A program made the position numbers and the translations under genes. The notes beneath the pieces are model-generated. The model was not told where the DNA came from and did not search any database. It saw nothing but the letters and a program-made list of their open reading frames with translations. Shown in pieces: positions 6,666-34,685 of a stretch of DNA of 64,000 nucleotides. Numbering within the stretch: position 1 is the stretch's first letter; every line of letters begins with the position of its first letter. The stretch covers positions 1-64,000 of the forward strand of contig JACQEP010000025.1 in the NCBI GenBank assembly GCA_016200485.1. The letters run 5' to 3'. The stretch comes from Gammaproteobacteria bacterium (GTDB taxonomy: Bacteria > Pseudomonadota > Gammaproteobacteria > Tenderiales > Tenderiaceae).

Positions 6666-7412
6666 TTTCGAGCGTACCCGTTCCAGATCCTGCTCCGTAT
6701 CCACCCCCGGAACCGTTGCTGTGGCTACCTCAGCCACATGTATACGATGACCATGCCATAGCGCCCGTAATTGCTCCAGTGATTCCTGCGTCTCCAAGGC
6801 CACGGCTGACCAGGTGACATATTCACGCAAAAATGCGGCACGGTAGGCATACATGCCGATATGGCGATAGTGTTCGCCTGTCGGTGGCAATGTTGATTTG
6901 CTCACCGCGAAGGCATCACGATCCCACGGAATCGGCGCGCGACTGAAATAAAGTGCATAACCCTGGTGATCGAACACAACTTTAACGATATTCGGATCGA
7001 ATAATTCTGCCGCACCGGTAATCCGTTCACACAATGTTGCGATACTGGCGTGTGTAAACTGCGCTAAATTGGTGGCCACTTGCTGAATCAATTGCGGCGG
7101 CATCAGCGGTTCATCGCCTTGTAAATTGACGATGATCTCATCTTTTTTCCAGCCACGTTGGGCACTGACTTCGGCAATACGATCAGTACCCGATCGATGT
7201 TCACTCGATGTCATGCAGACATCGGCACCGAATCCCTGTACCGCATCAAACACCGCTGAATGATCTGTCGCAATCACGACTTCGTCAGCACCACTTTTTA
7301 ACGCCTGACGATAGACATGCTCGATCATCGGCTTGCCGGCAATCAGGGCCAGCGGTTTAGCCGGTAAGCGCGTTGAGGCATAACGCGCCGGAATCACAAC
7401 CTTGAAACTCAC
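6657..7412 (-). CDS. kdsB: 3-deoxy-manno-octulosonate cytidylyltransferase
   Basis: A 251-residue enzyme that joins CTP and Kdo to make CMP-Kdo for lipopolysaccharide inner core. The nucleotide-binding start [17 protein letters not shown] and the motif [11 protein letters not shown] are typical of the family, and the length is normal. It overlaps the upstream ycaR gene by four bases. With lpxK and ycaR it forms the lipid A/Kdo block seen in many gammaproteobacteria. Confidence 0.96.
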
Positions 7413-7591
7413 CGCACTTCCTCGTCGGAAGCCAGACGACGAGCGGAATCTTCAAGCATCACCGGAATATCATCATGGATAGGATAAGCCAGTCGGTCGG
7501 CAGCACAAATTAATTCTTGTTCGGATTTGCGATACAACAAGGGCCCTTTGCAAACCGGACACACTAAAATGTCGAGCAATTTACTGTCCAT
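7409..7591 (-). CDS. ycaR: Trm112 family protein YcaR
   Basis: A 60-residue protein of the Trm112/YcaR family. It has a CPVCKGPL knuckle at the start and the conserved LLDILVCP and [12 protein letters not shown] segments. Members are small activating or zinc-ribbon-like proteins; in bacteria the exact role is not settled. It lies between lpxK (11-base overlap) and kdsB (4-base overlap), the conserved context for this family. Confidence 0.93.
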
Positions 7592-27756: not shown

Positions 27757-27808
27757 GAAAACCTGCAATAAAATGGCCGCTAATGCGGCCATTTTATTGC
27801 AGGTTTTC
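27757..27808. terminator. 24-bp perfect hairpin between csiV and the CRISPR array
   Basis: The left arm 27757-27780 and the right arm 27785-27808 are exact reverse complements, with loop TAAT. The core is GGCCGC-TAAT-GCGGCC with A/T-rich outer parts, so the stem has U-tracts in both directions and should act as a two-way terminator. It would stop csiV transcripts 19 bases before the first CRISPR repeat. Confidence 0.8.
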
Positions 27809-27826: not shown

Positions 27827-28259
27827 GCTCCGGTCAGTGCGCATATCCCGATGATGTATACTTCGAGGACGATGCCTGCACCTGCACAATTTAGTTCCGG
27901 TCAGTGCGCATATCCCGATGATGTATACTCGTGACAGTCACGGCAGCAAGAGAAAGCGAGTTCCGGTCAGTGCGCATATCCCGATGATGTATACTTCCGG
28001 TAAAGAACGCTCGCAGGAAGAACTGGTTCCGGTCAGTGCGCATATCCCGATGATGTATACTACAAACTCACACTGGCATCGGCTAGCATGAGTTCCGGTC
28101 AGTGCGCATATCCCGATGATGTATACTGCGGAATGTCGTGAGTCAAAATCAACTTGAGTTCCGGTCAGTGCGCATATCCCGATGATGTATACTTTTTAGA
28201 TACCTATGTCGCCGCCCTTGAAGGTTCCGGTCAGTGCGCATATCCCGATGATGTATACT
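27827..28259 (+). CRISPR. type II-C CRISPR array, 7 repeats and 6 spacers
   Basis: Seven 36-bp repeats start at 27827, 27894, 27960, 28026, 28092, 28158 and 28224. The repeat begins GTTCCGGTCAGTGCG and ends GATGATGTATACT. Spacers are 30 bp except the first, 31 bp. Repeats 2-7 are identical; repeat 1 has C for T at its second base. Each repeat ends in TATACT, a good -10 box. The strand is set by this box, by the terminator at 28271, and by the tracrRNA match to the repeat. In type II-C loci the degenerate repeat lies at the 5' end of the transcript, as here. New spacers are then expected near repeat 7, beside cas2. Confidence 0.97.
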
Positions 28260-28270
28260 ACGAATGGCAT

Positions 28271-28298
28271 AACCCACTGAATTGTCAGTGGGTTTTTG
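28271..28298 (+). terminator. rho-independent terminator of the CRISPR array
   Basis: AACCCACTGA (28271-28280) and TCAGTGGGTT (28285-28294) flank ATTG, with a T-run up to 28297. The run follows the hairpin only on the + strand, which supports rightward transcription of the array. Confidence 0.85.
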
Positions 28299-28330
28299 TC
28301 TTATCAGGCTTGAAAAATGGGCGTCCATAT

Positions 28331-28660
28331 TCAGAACAAGTTAAATTGATCCGGTGATTTTTTGGCGGCTTGCTTGGCCTTGCCACAGTAAGAAATGATT
28401 CGTTCGTATTGTTTATCGGTAAAGATGAGAATATTGACCTTCCCTCCCTCTGGCAAGGCCTGTTCCACCCGTTTGCAGAAAGTGTCTATCTGCGCCTGGC
28501 TGGTACAGAAACGCATATAAACCGAGAACTGCGCCATTTCGAATCCCATATCCAGCAGTGTATTGCGAAAATCGGTGGCTGCCTTGCGCTCACTCCTTTC
28601 CACTACAGGCAGATCGAACATTACCGTAACCCACATTAGTCGATACCCGCTAAGCATCAC
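28331..28660 (-). CDS. cas2: CRISPR-associated endonuclease Cas2
   Basis: A 109-residue Cas2 with ferredoxin-like fold. The catalytic-position Asp is in VTVMFDLPV (Asp16), and the order KAATDFRNTLLDMGFEMAQFSVYMRFC is typical of type II Cas2. It joins Cas1 to insert new spacers. It is the last gene of the leftward cas9-cas1-cas2 operon, three bases after cas1, and 71 bases from the array. The start could also be the ATG eight codons in (MWVTVMFDLP). Confidence 0.96.
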   Translation of the reverse strand: MMLSGYRLMWVTVMFDLPVVERSERKAATDFRNTLLDMGFEMAQFSVYMRFCTSQAQIDTFCKRVEQALPEGGKVNILIFTDKQYERIISYCGKAKQAAKKSPDQFNLF

Positions 28661-28663
28661 GCT

Positions 28664-29593
28664 TCAGTCATCAGACAGACTTGCCGCCATGGAGAGCGGA
28701 AGCCCTGGCAAGGGGAGATCGAGCTTGTCCCGATCGCCAAGGTAAACCTGAGCCAGAGACACAGCCAGGCGCTGCATACAGACCATGACGGGCGTGGCGC
28801 CTGAACTGGTTTGCATGTCATCGTAGAGAGTACGCACCAAAGAGCGTTTGGTATCTGACGTGACATTAACCTCTCCTGTTCGTTGCAAATGCCACACATG
28901 CAGGTCCATAACGGGGCGGAATGGCTCCATCAGATCATCAACTAACCGCATCGGATTGCCTTCATTGGAGTGATGCAGCCCCAGCGTAGGATGAAGCCCC
29001 GCTGCAATGACGGCACGTGCGGTAGCAGCACGCAGCACTGTGTAGCCGTAATTAAGCAAGCTGTTAAGCCCTCCTCCATTCTGATCGCGCCGAAAATCGT
29101 CGCCAAACAGTAGCCCCCAATAACGGCGAGCCCCCTGAGCCTCCAGATTATCTGGATCGCCAGAGCGTACCTTAGCTGTCAGCGCCGCCAATGGAGCAAC
29201 GGGTGCCCCCGCTGCTTCGAGGGCAGCAGCCTGTTGTTGCAGCTTGCTGCGCACCACCTCTGCCCACAGCCGTTTGTGGGTGGGGCGCGATGCTGCAATC
29301 TGCGCATCGAAACGTTTGGCTTGCTGAAAATTACCGTCCACCGGCCACAACATGCCGATGGCATTGTGATTGGCCGCACACAGCACAAACGGTGCACCAC
29401 GCTCAGCCAATGCCACCAGCAGGTTGTTGGTGTAACTCAAGCCATGCGCATTGACGATGACAGCCGCAATATCATCCAGCGGCACCTGCCCCAGCTCTTT
29501 ACGCTCCCCCTCCGTATCCTGTACAACCATAAAACCACGGGAAACAAACAGGTGCCGCCGGTCATCGGCCACTTCAACGATGCGGCCTATCAT
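28664..29593 (-). CDS. cas1: CRISPR-associated integrase Cas1
   Basis: A 309-residue spacer integrase of the type II group. The metal-binding residues are present: Glu151 in NLEAQGARRYWG, His207/His208 in GLHHSNEGNP and Asp220/Glu223 in DDLMEPFRP. Length is normal. It lies five bases after cas9 and three before cas2, so the three are surely co-transcribed. No csn2 or cas4 gene is present, which places the locus in subtype II-C. Confidence 0.97.
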   Translation of the reverse strand: MIGRIVEVADDRRHLFVSRGFMVVQDTEGERKELGQVPLDDIAAVIVNAHGLSYTNNLLVALAERGAPFVLCAANHNAIGMLWPVDGNFQQAKRFDAQIAASRPTHKRLWAEVVRSKLQQQAAALEAAGAPVAPLAALTAKVRSGDPDNLEAQGARRYWGLLFGDDFRRDQNGGGLNSLLNYGYTVLRAATARAVIAAGLHPTLGLHHSNEGNPMRLVDDLMEPFRPVMDLHVWHLQRTGEVNVTSDTKRSLVRTLYDDMQTSSGATPVMVCMQRLAVSLAQVYLGDRDKLDLPLPGLPLSMAASLSDD

Positions 29594-29598
29594 GGTGA

Positions 29599-32500
29599 TT
29601 ACCCTTTGAAGCCTGGATCACGCAGGTCGCCTATAGGTGACAATGTAATCTTACGGGCCCTACCTGCTTTCAGATCAGACACCCCAATTTGGGACAATAC
29701 AAACTCATCATTCAAGGCAATTCTTTCCACCGTACTAATCTGATCGACTGTTTTTCCCTCTTTTTTGATCAGATTTCTGGCCTTCCTTCTCTCATCATAT
29801 CGCTTGCTAACATTGGCCTCGCTCAGCTCTGTAAATGTCGCACCACCTTCTACGCTCATCTTCACAACAGATAAGAGGCGATTCTTGATGCCTTTATAAT
29901 CCATGCGAATTACATCACCAGGCATAAGCTTCATAATCAAGCTTCCTGGCTTGCTTGATAATTTTGTGTTGATCATTTTGTGAAGAACGTGTGCTTGATA
30001 AACTTTCCCATAACCAAACTCTCGTGCAAACTGATATGCCTTGAAGACTGGAATCGTTTCCATCACCCATTCTCCTGCATCGTCCTCTATGATCTCCAGG
30101 CAATAATTTCCATCCGGCGCATAGCCCTTATATGGTCTAGGACCGCCATCTACTGAGGTTCCATGTCTCGCCATCTGATTCAGTGAATAAACTGGAACAA
30201 CATACTCAATCGTTCTAGTTTTTCCACCCTCATCTCTCTTCTTCTGAATTACCGAACCATCTGGCCTTATGCCATAAGCCGTATCTTTAAACATGGAGCC
30301 TTCAAAACCATGATCCGGTTTATGACTAACAACAATATTGTTCAGCGCCCGCTCTACATGCTCGCGGTAATTAACCCACGGCAGTGGCATCTCCTCAACC
30401 AACCGGTCAAGCTGTCTTTCCCGCGCACTGGCACTGGCCTTGGCAAAGCGCTGCAACAACCCTTGATCGGTAATACCAATCACGGCGGCATCGAGCGCAT
30501 GGTGGCGATGGTCATTACGGTTCTTTATCTCGGAGCCTGACAGCAGTTGATTGAGGCCAAACTTGCCGCGCAGCAATGCCGTCATACGGCCAGGAATGGC
30601 ACGCACACTGTTGGGCGGGCAAATCAGCGATAGATACTCCTTGGCAATACGCGACAAATAGGCGGTATCGTTCAGCGACCTGGCAAGAAAATCTTTATCT
30701 TCTTTGAGCCAGCGCTGGTAACCATCGGGCGCAAAACGCTTGGCTTTTTCCTTGGGCATGAGTGCTGCACGCTGAAGGATGGCGACATAGTCATACTCGC
30801 TGTTATCGGCAAATGCCTCATAGGGCGCGCGATTACCTTTGTCGCGGTTGGCTCGACGTAACGACACCGTTTTGTTGTTCATACTGTCATCCAGTGTTTT
30901 GGAGAAGGGCAGAATATGCTCGATCTCTACATCATTGGATAACAACCGCTCAATACTGATCTGCTCACCTGTATAGGGGCATTGCCGGTCAGCAATGTTA
31001 TTAATATTGAGCTCTCTCCAGAGCTGCATTTTTTGCGATAGTTCACGGCGCTTGGCCTTATCGAGATTGTCAGGAGTCAGCCCCAGCACCACACATGCTT
31101 CGGCGACATGCTTGTTATTGAGGTCTTGTCGCTCCTTTTGTTCACGCTGTATTTCCTGCTTTCTTTCATGGCCAAGCTTAAGATCACGCGCCACCTCCAC
31201 AATAATTTCGCTGGGATGGCCATAACGCTTGATGAGAGTATTTACCACCTTACGCAGCTCGTTCAGGCCAATATGCACCGTAGGGTTGGCGATCTTGCCA
31301 TAACGCTCTTCATCATTACGCGGGTTGTCCTTAGCGAAAGCGACATGGCGAAGTAATGGAATGCCGTAATAGGGCAGAGACTCCATGATCTCGCCAGTTT
31401 GCTGCGCATGTGAAAGTTCACTGTGGCTATCAAACCCTGCCCGCGTAACTGCTCCTGAGTAAACAACCACATCATTGACCAGCTCTGGTAGTATCCGAGC
31501 CAGGGCTGCACGACTCAAACTGCCATAGCCTTCTGGCAGACCGACACTGGCAATGCGTTCTGCCGTTGGCTCATCCACGCCGGTATTATCCTGTAACCAC
31601 GCCACCAGCGCAGATTCGCTGGCTTCATTCAGCAACTTTTCCACTATATTGTCTTGCAGTTCAGGAACAAAGCCATGCCACCGATCGCCGAAGGTCATCT
31701 CTTTTGAAAGCATTACCGAGGTAACATTACCCTTCAAGCGATCACGCTTAATGTCCTCAAGATTAAATTTGGTAGTTCCCGGTAATTTCAGCTTCTTAAG
31801 CATCGCCGTAAATCTCACTTCACTCTGATGTTCAAGAAGATCAATGATCTGATTTCGCTGCTCAAGCGTTAACTCCTGTTCCCGCAGGTCAGAAGTTAGG
31901 TATCGCAGGTTATTGACCTCCTGATAAATGCGGAAGCGTTGTGTACTTGGCAGGGCCTGCGGCGCGCGCTCCTCATTAGGCAACAGCGTACAGCGTCCTG
32001 GTTTGATCGGCTTGAGTGGACGCTGATGCAGCAATATATCTTTGAATTCATCACGGGCTGCATCATTGAACAGCAATGGATTCAAGCTATTCTGTTTGGC
32101 CCATAGCATATCGAATTCATGCTCGATCATAGCTCGGTTAGCATAAAAATCGTAAGCCTTGTCCTTCTGGGTTTTGCCGCGCAAACGTGCCCGCACACTT
32201 AGGCGCGCCTCATGGCGTTTTGCTAGCCATTCGCCCAGGGTCTGACAGTTTTCCTGTTCCAGTTTGGTGTACAAATCCTTGATAGCCTTTTTGAGTGCGC
32301 CACTGTCGTTGTCTTTCTTGTCTGTCTTACGGTTACTTAAAAACCCACGCCGCTGGTTGATGTGAAACAAGGCACGGGCGAATTCGGGGCCGCTCAGGGA
32401 TTCGTACAATCCCTTTTTGCGCAAGGCATAGGGATCGAGCTTCACCAGCTCTCGACGTTGACCATCATCCTTCGGAAAAAAACCAAGCTTAATCAGCGAT

Positions 32501-32739
32501 GCCATCATGCGTTCTTTGCGTTTCAACAGCCGGTCGCGGCGGCGGCGCATCTGGCGGGCATTGCGGCGGGTGACGGCAAGAGAGCTGCCATCTTTGGGAT
32601 TCCGCCCATCGGAGAAGATGCGAACCCCCATCCTGATAACGGCAATGGGTTCATCGTTGGCATTCAATCGAATCAGACACCAGCCGATTGACGTTGACCC
32701 CATATCCAGAGCCAACCGGTATCGCATTTTCGGTAGCAT
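29599..32739 (-). CDS. cas9: type II-C CRISPR RNA-guided nuclease Cas9
   Basis: A 1046-residue Cas9, in the small type II-C size range. RuvC-I LALDMGSTSIGW carries Asp12; the Arg-rich bridge helix is at about 57-78 (RRNARQMRRRRDRLLKRKER); RuvC-II is EIIVEVARDLK with Glu515; the HNH domain has EIEHILPFSK with His608 plus Asn631; RuvC-III HHALDAAVIG has His747 and Asp750. All nuclease residues are therefore intact. WED and PAM-interacting regions follow from about residue 790. Start: GGGAGGGGAAGT immediately precedes the ATG. By hand count, DNA for residues beyond about 800 has near 43% G+C against about 53% just before. The PAM cannot be read from sequence. Confidence 0.97.
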   Translation of the reverse strand: MLPKMRYRLALDMGSTSIGWCLIRLNANDEPIAVIRMGVRIFSDGRNPKDGSSLAVTRRNARQMRRRRDRLLKRKERMMASLIKLGFFPKDDGQRRELVKLDPYALRKKGLYESLSGPEFARALFHINQRRGFLSNRKTDKKDNDSGALKKAIKDLYTKLEQENCQTLGEWLAKRHEARLSVRARLRGKTQKDKAYDFYANRAMIEHEFDMLWAKQNSLNPLLFNDAARDEFKDILLHQRPLKPIKPGRCTLLPNEERAPQALPSTQRFRIYQEVNNLRYLTSDLREQELTLEQRNQIIDLLEHQSEVRFTAMLKKLKLPGTTKFNLEDIKRDRLKGNVTSVMLSKEMTFGDRWHGFVPELQDNIVEKLLNEASESALVAWLQDNTGVDEPTAERIASVGLPEGYGSLSRAALARILPELVNDVVVYSGAVTRAGFDSHSELSHAQQTGEIMESLPYYGIPLLRHVAFAKDNPRNDEERYGKIANPTVHIGLNELRKVVNTLIKRYGHPSEIIVEVARDLKLGHERKQEIQREQKERQDLNNKHVAEACVVLGLTPDNLDKAKRRELSQKMQLWRELNINNIADRQCPYTGEQISIERLLSNDVEIEHILPFSKTLDDSMNNKTVSLRRANRDKGNRAPYEAFADNSEYDYVAILQRAALMPKEKAKRFAPDGYQRWLKEDKDFLARSLNDTAYLSRIAKEYLSLICPPNSVRAIPGRMTALLRGKFGLNQLLSGSEIKNRNDHRHHALDAAVIGITDQGLLQRFAKASASARERQLDRLVEEMPLPWVNYREHVERALNNIVVSHKPDHGFEGSMFKDTAYGIRPDGSVIQKKRDEGGKTRTIEYVVPVYSLNQMARHGTSVDGGPRPYKGYAPDGNYCLEIIEDDAGEWVMETIPVFKAYQFAREFGYGKVYQAHVLHKMINTKLSSKPGSLIMKLMPGDVIRMDYKGIKNRLLSVVKMSVEGGATFTELSEANVSKRYDERRKARNLIKKEGKTVDQISTVERIALNDEFVLSQIGVSDLKAGRARKITLSPIGDLRDPGFKG

Positions 32740-32752
32740 ACTTCCCCTCCCG

Positions 32753-32782
32753 TTGATTTTTATTGAACCACCACTTTATACT
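32753..32782 (+). promoter_or_regulatory. tracrRNA promoter
   Basis: TTGATT at 32753-32758, an 18-base spacer, and TATACT at 32777-32782. Transcription would start near 32789, just ahead of the anti-repeat. It points away from cas9, whose start is 14 bases to the left. Confidence 0.75.
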
Positions 32783-32788
32783 GGTACC

Positions 32789-32873
32789 CGTTACTACATC
32801 GGGATATGCGCTCTGTCCGCTAACAAGCTGAAAGATGCACCAAATGAAAGGCCGCTATATGCGGCCTTTTTCA
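32789..32873 (+). ncRNA. tracrRNA
   Basis: About 85 bases. The anti-repeat (32793-32822) contains CATCGGGATATGCGC, an exact complement to repeat positions 13-27, then pairs with repeat positions 5-11 across two U-U mismatches. The tail has AAGCTGAAAGATGCACC, which resembles the nexus segment of Neisseria II-C tracrRNA as I recall it, and ends in the terminator AAAGGCCGC-TATAT-GCGGCCTTTTT at 32847-32873. It is on the opposite strand to cas9 and the same strand as the array. Processing would need RNase III, which is not in the window. Confidence 0.9.
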
Positions 32874-33284: not shown

Positions 33285-34685
33285 ATGAGACCCCAAAACC
33301 AAGCGGCAAGAAATCAATTGACCACGGAATTGCGGCGAAACGCCCCTGTTTCGGCGGCTGATCTGGCCGGTCACCTACGGATCAGCGTACCTACGGTTTT
33401 GCGCATACTGCGGGAACGAGGGGATCAAATCGTCCGCATCGGCACAACAAAGAAAGCGCGCTATGCTTTACGCCGCCCGTTGCGCGGTATCGCACACTCT
33501 ATTCCTGTCTACCGCATTGATATTCAAGGCAAGGGTCATAGCTGTGGAACACTGGAGCTCGTGGAACCCCATGGCTCGGTCATGGATCTGGAGATCATGG
33601 GTTGGCCTGTCGATGTTGAACATAGCAGCGGTTATTGGGATGGCCTGCCCTACCCGTTGTACGACATGCGGCCGCAGGGCTTTCTCGGTAGAAGTTTCGC
33701 GCGTCAGACCTACCGGGATCTTGCGCTTCCTTCCAACCTGAGTGACTGGTCAGACGATGATATTGTGCACGCGCTTAGTCAGCGCGGGTCAGATACTATC
33801 GGCAATTTGATTGTGGGCGATCACGCCTATGAGCGCTGGCTAACAAGTGTTGCCAGTCCTGAAGCCCCCCCACTGCCTGAATCTGGGCTGGCTGAGTGTT
33901 ATGCGGACCTTGCCGTTCGTATCATGAACCTGGGCATTGCCGGATCGAGTGCAGCAGGTGAATTTCCCAAGTTCACGGCCAGCCGCGAACTGCCGGGGGC
34001 GGCGGCACCGCACGTCATCGTTAAATTTTCAGGCACGGAGGATTCAGGTGCGGTCAAACGCTGGTCAGACCTTTTGGTGTGTGAACATATCGCGTTAACA
34101 ACCCTGAGGGAAACTACACGTTTACCTGCCGCTCATAGCAGAATCCTGAACGCGCAAGGGCGCACCTTTCTTGAAGTGGAACGCTTTGACCGTCACGGAA
34201 TGTTTGGCCGCAGCGAAATCGTGACCTTGGCGAGTATCGATGCCGCATTTCTGGGCAGTGCGGAATCGCTCTGGCCAGAATCAATCCGGCGCCTAACCAA
34301 GATTAAGCTGGCCAATCAGCTTCTGGAAAACAAGGTACGTGTGCTGTGGTGGTATGGAAAGCTCATTGCCAATTCCGATATGCACATGGGTAATCTGTCT
34401 TTCACCTTTACACCAGAACCGGGTAAGCAGCCTGAATTAAGGCTGGCGCCCACCTACGATATGTTACCCATGTTCTATGCGCCTCTCGCGGGAGGGGAAG
34501 TTCCTGTGCGCACTTTTGAACCCGTGTTGCCGTTACCGAAGGAACGGGAAGCCTGGTTGATGGCATGTGCAGCAGCGCTACATTTCTGGCAGCAAACGAG
34601 TACCGATACACGCATCAGTGATGCATTCAGAAAAGTTTGTGGTGAGAATTACCAGCGATTAAACAACTTGGTACAGCTGGTTTGA
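33285..34685 (+). CDS. yjjJ: HipA family serine/threonine kinase, YjjJ type
   Basis: A 466-residue HipA-family kinase. Unlike classical HipA it carries its own N-terminal winged helix (residues about 10-55, VSAADLAGHLRISVPTVLRILRERGDQ), then the HipA N-terminal region and the kinase core, with the catalytic loop LIANSDMHMGNLSF and the metal site APTYDMLPMF. E. coli YjjJ has this layout and is toxic when overproduced. No hipB-like antitoxin gene is adjacent; the built-in DNA-binding domain may give self-control. It is next to the CRISPR locus and the mtnP remnant, in an A+T-rich setting, which suggests an accessory insertion. Confidence 0.87.
   Translation: MRPQNQAARNQLTTELRRNAPVSAADLAGHLRISVPTVLRILRERGDQIVRIGTTKKARYALRRPLRGIAHSIPVYRIDIQGKGHSCGTLELVEPHGSVMDLEIMGWPVDVEHSSGYWDGLPYPLYDMRPQGFLGRSFARQTYRDLALPSNLSDWSDDDIVHALSQRGSDTIGNLIVGDHAYERWLTSVASPEAPPLPESGLAECYADLAVRIMNLGIAGSSAAGEFPKFTASRELPGAAAPHVIVKFSGTEDSGAVKRWSDLLVCEHIALTTLRETTRLPAAHSRILNAQGRTFLEVERFDRHGMFGRSEIVTLASIDAAFLGSAESLWPESIRRLTKIKLANQLLENKVRVLWWYGKLIANSDMHMGNLSFTFTPEPGKQPELRLAPTYDMLPMFYAPLAGGEVPVRTFEPVLPLPKEREAWLMACAAALHFWQQTSTDTRISDAFRKVCGENYQRLNNLVQLV

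What the first reader, a model, noticed from the sequence alone, without database searches (positions are those of the whole stretch)
27827..32873. Complete minimal type II-C CRISPR-Cas locus with its tracrRNA
Array, cas2, cas1, cas9 and tracrRNA are all present and look intact in 5 kb. cas9-cas1-cas2 genes are 3-5 bases apart; csn2 and cas4 are absent, which sets subtype II-C. Cas9 is 1046 residues with all RuvC and HNH residues visible (Asp12, Glu515, His608, Asn631, His747, Asp750). The anti-repeat matches the array repeat over 15 consecutive bases. I do not recognise this repeat or Cas9 as a characterised system, though only a search can say.
Basis: partly seen in the sequence, partly recalled or inferred. 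Interest (0 to 1): 0.75.

Follow-up and report, generated by a model that had tools for sequence, protein, structure and literature searches.

The report
Type II-C CRISPR-Cas9 locus, intact

Summary
The window holds a 7-repeat/6-spacer array, cas2, cas1, an intact 1046-residue Cas9 with all catalytic residues, and a divergent tracrRNA with promoter-like and terminator sequences. It is a genuine type II-C locus and a new member of a known kind. Fifty-seven loci with 50-78% identical Cas9s were found in beta/gammaproteobacterial genomes, including gamma proteobacterium HdN1. Published work places HdN1 beside the described Bordetella pseudohinzii II-C system. No close relative has a solved structure.

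Comparison adds four things. (1) All 45 distinct clade repeats end in TANA(A/C)T, a -10-like box, consistent with one promoter per repeat. (2) The first repeat is mutated in 17 of 35 complete arrays, the last in none, so arrays grow at the cas2-side 3' end, as published for II-C. (3) A covarying hairpin/terminator sits about 11 nt after the last repeat in nearly all arrays. (4) Spacer 3 matches the host's own dnaA at 29 of 30 positions.

The closest relative also has two spacers matching its own chromosome. No shared flank motif is seen, so a missing PAM is the likeliest reason for survival, but this locus's PAM remains unknown. In Ottowia, spacers matching its own prophages give a 3' PAM near NNRNNTYR.

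The parts
27757..27808 (+). Perfect 24-bp inverted repeat with T-run just upstream of the array: intrinsic terminator-like, would insulate the array from csiV transcription
   Evidence: inverted repeat, 100% complementary; role by analogy with upstream terminators of II-C arrays in PMC12080349
27827..28259 (+). CRISPR array: 7 repeats of 36 nt (27827, 27894, 27960, 28026, 28092, 28158, 28224) and 6 spacers (31,30,30,30,30,30 nt)
27827..27862 (+). First (oldest, 'extra') repeat, degenerate (T2C)
   Evidence: clade pattern
27996..28025 (+). Spacer 3: 29/30 match to the host's own dnaA (G000 contig 16, 285726-285758, minus); the only mismatch is nt 1, PAM-distal; sense to dnaA
28254..28259 (+). 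TATACT at the end of the last repeat (same 6 nt in every repeat): -10-like box, T31 A32 A34 T36 invariant in 45 distinct clade repeats
28266..28300 (+). Covarying hairpin with T-run about 11 nt after the last repeat: intrinsic terminator of array transcripts and neighbour of the presumed spacer-integration end
   Evidence: z -5.25; covariation
28331..28660 (-). cas2 (109 aa)
28664..29593 (-). cas1, type II (TIGR03639)
29599..32739 (-). cas9 (1046 aa; RuvC and HNH residues intact)
32753..32782 (+). Promoter-like site TTGATT-18-TATACT for the tracrRNA
   Evidence: consensus match only; the number of such sites in the region is at chance level
32789..32873 (+). tracrRNA: anti-repeat 32797-32819, clade-conserved CTAACAAGCTGAAAGATGCACCAAATG, terminator hairpin 32846-32870

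Best explanation
This is an intact type II-C CRISPR-Cas9 adaptive immune locus. Each repeat probably carries its own promoter (-10-like TATACT at its 3' end), so short crRNAs start inside each spacer and run into the next repeat. That repeat pairs with the divergently transcribed tracrRNA and the duplex is loaded on Cas9, which cuts matching DNA carrying a 3' PAM. Cas1-Cas2 add new spacers at the 3', cas2-side end, next to a conserved hairpin that also terminates array transcription before it runs into the convergent cas genes. Spacer 3 was most likely taken by mistake from the cell's own dnaA and is tolerated because its target lacks a usable PAM. Shown by sequence: gene content, catalytic residues, tracrRNA:repeat complementarity, array polarity, hairpin covariation, the dnaA match. 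Inferred: expression, promoter use, nuclease activity, PAM, the reason for tolerance.
For: Cas9, Cas1 and Cas2 families over cut-off and Cas1 of the type II group. Catalytic residues invariant in 55 aligned Cas9s. tracrRNA conserved in sequence and position in nearly all clade loci. -10-like box invariant at four positions in 45 distinct repeats, including bases not paired with the tracrRNA. First repeat mutated in 17 of 35 complete arrays, last in 0 of 35, and in those first repeats only one change lies outside nt 1-17 (nt 36), as expected if the promoter half is kept. 3' hairpin with changes on both sides in 11 of 14 pairs, covariation score 0.351 against 0.170 for shuffles. PAM side confirmed in Ottowia: information only 3' of the protospacer. 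Published II-C systems acquire at the last repeat and carry repeat promoters (PMC12080349, PMC12638026).
Against: No expression or cleavage data. No convincing phage or plasmid protospacer for any of the six spacers; one weak 22-nt match for spacer 5 in a tRNA-rich region of a 183-kb viral contig may be chance. The dnaA match could also mean that interference is off. No good -35 box is seen in the repeat. The promoter scan does not exceed chance in number of sites.
Confidence: 0.93

Rival explanations
1. The locus looks intact but interference is off in this cell (not expressed, or blocked by an anti-CRISPR), which is why a spacer against the essential dnaA is tolerated.
For: Spacer 3 matches dnaA over the whole seed. 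The dnaA flank is the family consensus, so there is no escape mutation. A related system, Ottowia oral taxon 894, has about two dozen spacers matching its own prophages with a shared PAM, where inhibition is the natural explanation.
Against: All Cas9 catalytic residues are intact. Three spacers lie on the newer side of spacer 3, so the array apparently kept growing after it was acquired. The dnaA flank shares no motif with the two chromosomal self-targets of the closest relative, as expected if self-targets simply lack a PAM.
Confidence: 0.2
2. Spacer 3 is a working guide on dnaA, used to regulate replication initiation or dnaA expression.
For: A 29/30 match to the host's own gene, not present in relatives' dnaA (closest relatives have 5 or more mismatches).
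Against: The spacer is sense to dnaA, so PAM-free RNA targeting of dnaA mRNA is excluded. Full-length pairing by an active Cas9 should cut rather than regulate. The closest relative's self-targets hit unrelated genes (GGDEF, MCP), so there is no shared regulatory theme. C. jejuni II-C is known to pick up host spacers (PMC4283603).
Confidence: 0.03
3. A non-canonical or degenerate Cas9 relative (for example Cas9d/II-D or an IscB-like remnant) rather than II-C.
For: A weak NF049971 (Cas9d) match, 132.6 bits.
Against: That is far below its cut-off of 375, while Csn1/Cas9 gives 615 bits against 100. The operon has cas1, cas2, tracrRNA and array in the II-C order.
Confidence: 0.01

Closest known systems
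Type II-C system of Bordetella pseudohinzii (PMC4624362) and Alicycliphilus denitrificans
   Same: cas9-cas1-cas2 order, divergent tracrRNA upstream of cas9, 36-nt repeats, 30-nt spacers, degenerate terminal repeat; HdN1 Cas9 lies just outside its clade in that paper and is a 62% identical relative here
   Different: The Bordetella cas9 gene is 3117 bp against 3141 bp here; its array is longer (21 spacers) and its spacers match known prophages. Its protein was not held here, so direct identity was not measured.
NmeCas9 / GeoCas9 / ThermoCas9 (solved II-C Cas9s)
   Same: RuvC, HNH, bridge helix and REC regions align; same locus logic
   Different: The C-terminal 246 residues have no PDB sequence match at E up to 10; repeat and tracrRNA differ; PAM unknown
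Campylobacter jejuni II-C (PMC4283603, PMC12080349)
   Same: 3'-end acquisition, promoter-bearing repeats, host-derived spacers, upstream terminator and mutated extra repeat
   Different: Different Cas9 lineage; the C. jejuni host spacers were found in phage carrier-state cultures

Membership tests
Type II CRISPR-Cas | cas9 gene with RuvC and HNH nuclease domains | tested here: met
   TIGR01865 615 bits (cut-off 100), PF13395, PF18541; catalytic residues invariant in 55 aligned Cas9s
Type II CRISPR-Cas | tracrRNA with anti-repeat pairing to the array repeat | tested here: met
   15 consecutive bases, duplex -42.9 kcal/mol; conserved across clade loci. By sequence only.
Subtype II-C | only cas9, cas1, cas2; no csn2 (II-A), no cas4 (II-B) | tested here: met
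   No other ORF between csiV and the yjjJ-like gene encodes a Cas protein
Subtype II-C | Cas1 of the type II (NMENI) group | tested here: met
   TIGR03639 231.5 bits, cut-off 120
Subtype II-C | promoter in each repeat | tested here: inconclusive
   -10-like TANA(A/C)T invariant in 45 distinct repeats; no clear -35; no RNA data
Subtype II-C | spacers acquired at the 3' end | tested here: inconclusive
   Degenerate repeats only at the 5' end: 17/35 first, 0/35 last; acquisition itself not observed
Functional II-C immunity | RNA-guided DNA cleavage with a PAM | not testable with these tools
   No assay; PAM of this Cas9 not found
Cas9d / subtype II-D | NF049971 above cut-off | tested here: not met
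   132.6 bits against cut-off 375

The most novel reading that the evidence does not exclude
The covarying hairpin fixed about 11 nt beyond the last repeat is not only a terminator but the true 'downstream leader' that directs Cas1-Cas2 to the last repeat in this II-C lineage, and this sub-lineage has relaxed self-avoidance, so that it repeatedly stores spacers from host genes such as dnaA.
Probability: 0.15. Interest if true: 0.65.

Novelty: new member of a known kind. Interest (0 to 1): 0.4.

Why it matters
It adds an intact, compact (1046 aa) Cas9 with a C-terminal PAM-interacting region unlike any solved one by sequence, in a clade of at least 57 loci that is hardly characterised. The clade gives a clean natural data set for II-C array polarity, repeat promoters and the 3' end element. 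The dnaA spacer is a sharp natural test of how a cell survives a self-targeting guide against an essential gene: wrong PAM, inhibitor or silence.

Tried and rejected
Phage and plasmid BLAST with the array, and with 75 spacers of the members with the most similar PAM-interacting domain against phages: no usable protospacer, so no PAM for this Cas9. Six viral-contig scans with 20-nt spacer ends gave one hit (spacer 5, 22 nt exact in a 183-kb contig); it matches 25 of 30 overall in a tRNA-rich stretch and is treated as probably chance. A scan with a core shared by two L041 spacers gave nothing. The array of G400, whose PAM-interacting domain is 64% identical, gave neither self-targets nor phage hits. 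The hypothesis of an escape mutation in the dnaA flank was tested and rejected. RNA targeting of dnaA mRNA was rejected because the spacer is sense. The AlphaFold model of Cas9 is poor (mean pLDDT 67.8, pTM 0.37), so its fold matches to Nme1Cas9 and ThermoCas9 are only supportive. Rfam found nothing in the window. The Zhang et al. 2013 Neisseria paper is not held.

Full report
What is there. The window carries, in 5 kb, a 36-nt-repeat CRISPR array (27827-28259, plus strand), cas2 (28331-28660), cas1 (28664-29593) and cas9 (29599-32739), all three on the minus strand and 3 and 5 nt apart, and a tracrRNA gene on the plus strand just upstream of cas9 (about 32789-32873). Family models confirm each gene and put Cas1 in the type II group; the Cas9d model is far below its cut-off. 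The repeat occurs nowhere else in the host genome, and Cas9's HNH domain has one match there.

Is it more than chance? Yes. The array is seven near-identical 36-mers at 66-67 nt spacing. The anti-repeat shares 15 consecutive bases with the complement of the repeat, while the longest match elsewhere in the window is 12 on either strand.

Relatives. A scan of genome contigs returned 57 loci whose Cas9s are 50-78% identical in the best segment, from Burkholderiales, Nitrosomonadales, Gallionellaceae and gammaproteobacteria, including HdN1 at 62%. The closest full-length relative is L041 at 75%. No solved structure is close, and the C-terminal 246 residues, expected to hold the PAM-interacting domain, have no PDB sequence match at all. 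The published II-C system of Bordetella pseudohinzii has the same anatomy, and its Cas9 tree puts HdN1 beside the Burkholderiales clade (PMC4624362).

tracrRNA. In nearly all clade loci the tracrRNA lies divergently just upstream of cas9 with the same layout: anti-repeat, CTAACAAGCTGAAAGATGCACCAAATG, then a G+C-rich terminator hairpin. Here a promoter-like TTGATT-18-TATACT lies at 32753-32782 and the terminator at 32846-32870. The number of promoter-like sites in the region is not above chance, so the promoter call rests on position.

Repeat promoter. Among 45 distinct clade repeats the last six bases are TANA(A/C)T, with T31, A32, A34 and T36 invariant, while neighbouring bases 27-30 vary. 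That is the pattern of a -10 box, and II-C repeats are known to carry promoters (PMC12638026, PMC12080349). The mutated first repeats agree: of 35 arrays with both ends in the contig, 17 have a mutated first repeat and none a mutated last repeat. Apart from one change at position 36, every first-repeat mutation lies in positions 1-17, so the half carrying the -10 box is kept while part of the tracrRNA-pairing half decays. Here the first repeat has one change (T2C), and a perfect 24-bp inverted repeat with a T-run lies just upstream (27757-27808). Both match strategies described for silencing the unused first repeat in II-C arrays (PMC12080349).

The 3' end. About 11 nt after the last repeat nearly every clade array has a hairpin followed by T residues (here 28266-28300, z -5.25). 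In 46 sequences 11 of 14 pairs show changes on both sides, with a covariation score of 0.351 against 0.170 for shuffles and 0.06-0.19 for slid partners; five of the 51 flanks collected, those whose hairpin has another length or is unclear, were left out of that alignment. The element would end transcripts fired by the last repeat's promoter before they run into the convergent cas genes. Because the array appears to grow at this end, it may also act as a leader; that is not shown. The II-C papers read here discuss upstream structures, not this one.

Self-targeting. A search of the host genome with the array found spacer 3 (27996-28025) in the host's own dnaA: 29 of 30 bases, the only mismatch at the PAM-distal first base (DnaA by Pfam). 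The match is far beyond chance. dnaA of 24 relatives differs at 5 or more positions in this stretch, and the dnaA flank TTCCATACC is close to the family consensus, so the source was this lineage and no escape mutation is visible. The spacer is sense to dnaA, so it cannot direct cutting of dnaA mRNA. The closest relative (L041/G248) has two perfect chromosomal self-matches among 29 spacers, in a PAS-GGDEF gene and a chemotaxis-receptor gene. The three 3' flanks (TTCCATAC, ATTTAATT, AGTATCCA) share no base at any position, which fits targets lacking a PAM. Two other arrays tested, G400 (40 spacers) and Diaphorobacter aerolatus (61), had no credible match to their own genome outside the locus itself.

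PAM. For this Cas9 the PAM is unknown. For Ottowia oral taxon 894 (56% identical overall, 34% in the C-terminal region), about two dozen spacers match its own prophage regions and give a 3' consensus near NNRNNTYR. This confirms that the PAM lies 3' of the protospacer and hence the crRNA orientation, but it should not be transferred to this Cas9. The window's dnaA flank does not fit that consensus.

Host context. The same genome carries a complete type I-F system on another contig (cas6f, cas7f, cas5f, cas8f, cas3f, cas1f and an array). The II-C locus lies between csiV and a yjjJ/HipA-like gene, with G+C 50.6% against 53.1% for the window.

Verdict. The finding is real and correctly interpreted: an intact type II-C locus, new as an individual, ordinary as a kind. 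Its most interesting features are the dnaA spacer and the conserved 3' hairpin. Expression, cleavage, PAM and the reason for tolerance remain to be tested.

Noticed in passing
L064/L118-L123 (Ottowia sp. oral taxon 894): About two dozen of 58 II-C spacers match the genome's own prophage regions, mostly with 2 or fewer mismatches and a shared 3' PAM near NNRNNTYR, beside a Cas9 with intact catalytic residues. This suggests an anti-CRISPR in those prophages and gives a PAM for that Cas9.
   Followed up: partly
L041 / L099 about 7323-7355 and L100 about 7504-7533: The closest relative's array holds two spacers perfectly matching its own chromosomal genes (PAS-GGDEF protein; methyl-accepting chemotaxis protein).
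   Followed up: partly
L154 (host genome contig 4, 246-265 kb): The host also carries a complete type I-F CRISPR-Cas system with its own array.
   Followed up: partly
window 28266-28300 and the same place in about 45 relatives: Covarying hairpin/terminator at a nearly fixed distance after the last repeat, next to the presumed spacer-integration end; not described in the II-C papers read here.
   Followed up: yes
window 33285-34685 (+): yjjJ-type HipA-family gene (NF007297, 483 bits) beside the tracrRNA.
   Followed up: no
L019 and L057: Two loci show a second array or an interrupted array close to the first.
   Followed up: no
L076 9028-9049: The last 22 nt of spacer 5 match exactly a tRNA-rich stretch of a 183-kb viral contig; 25 of 30 overall, possibly chance.
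   Followed up: partly
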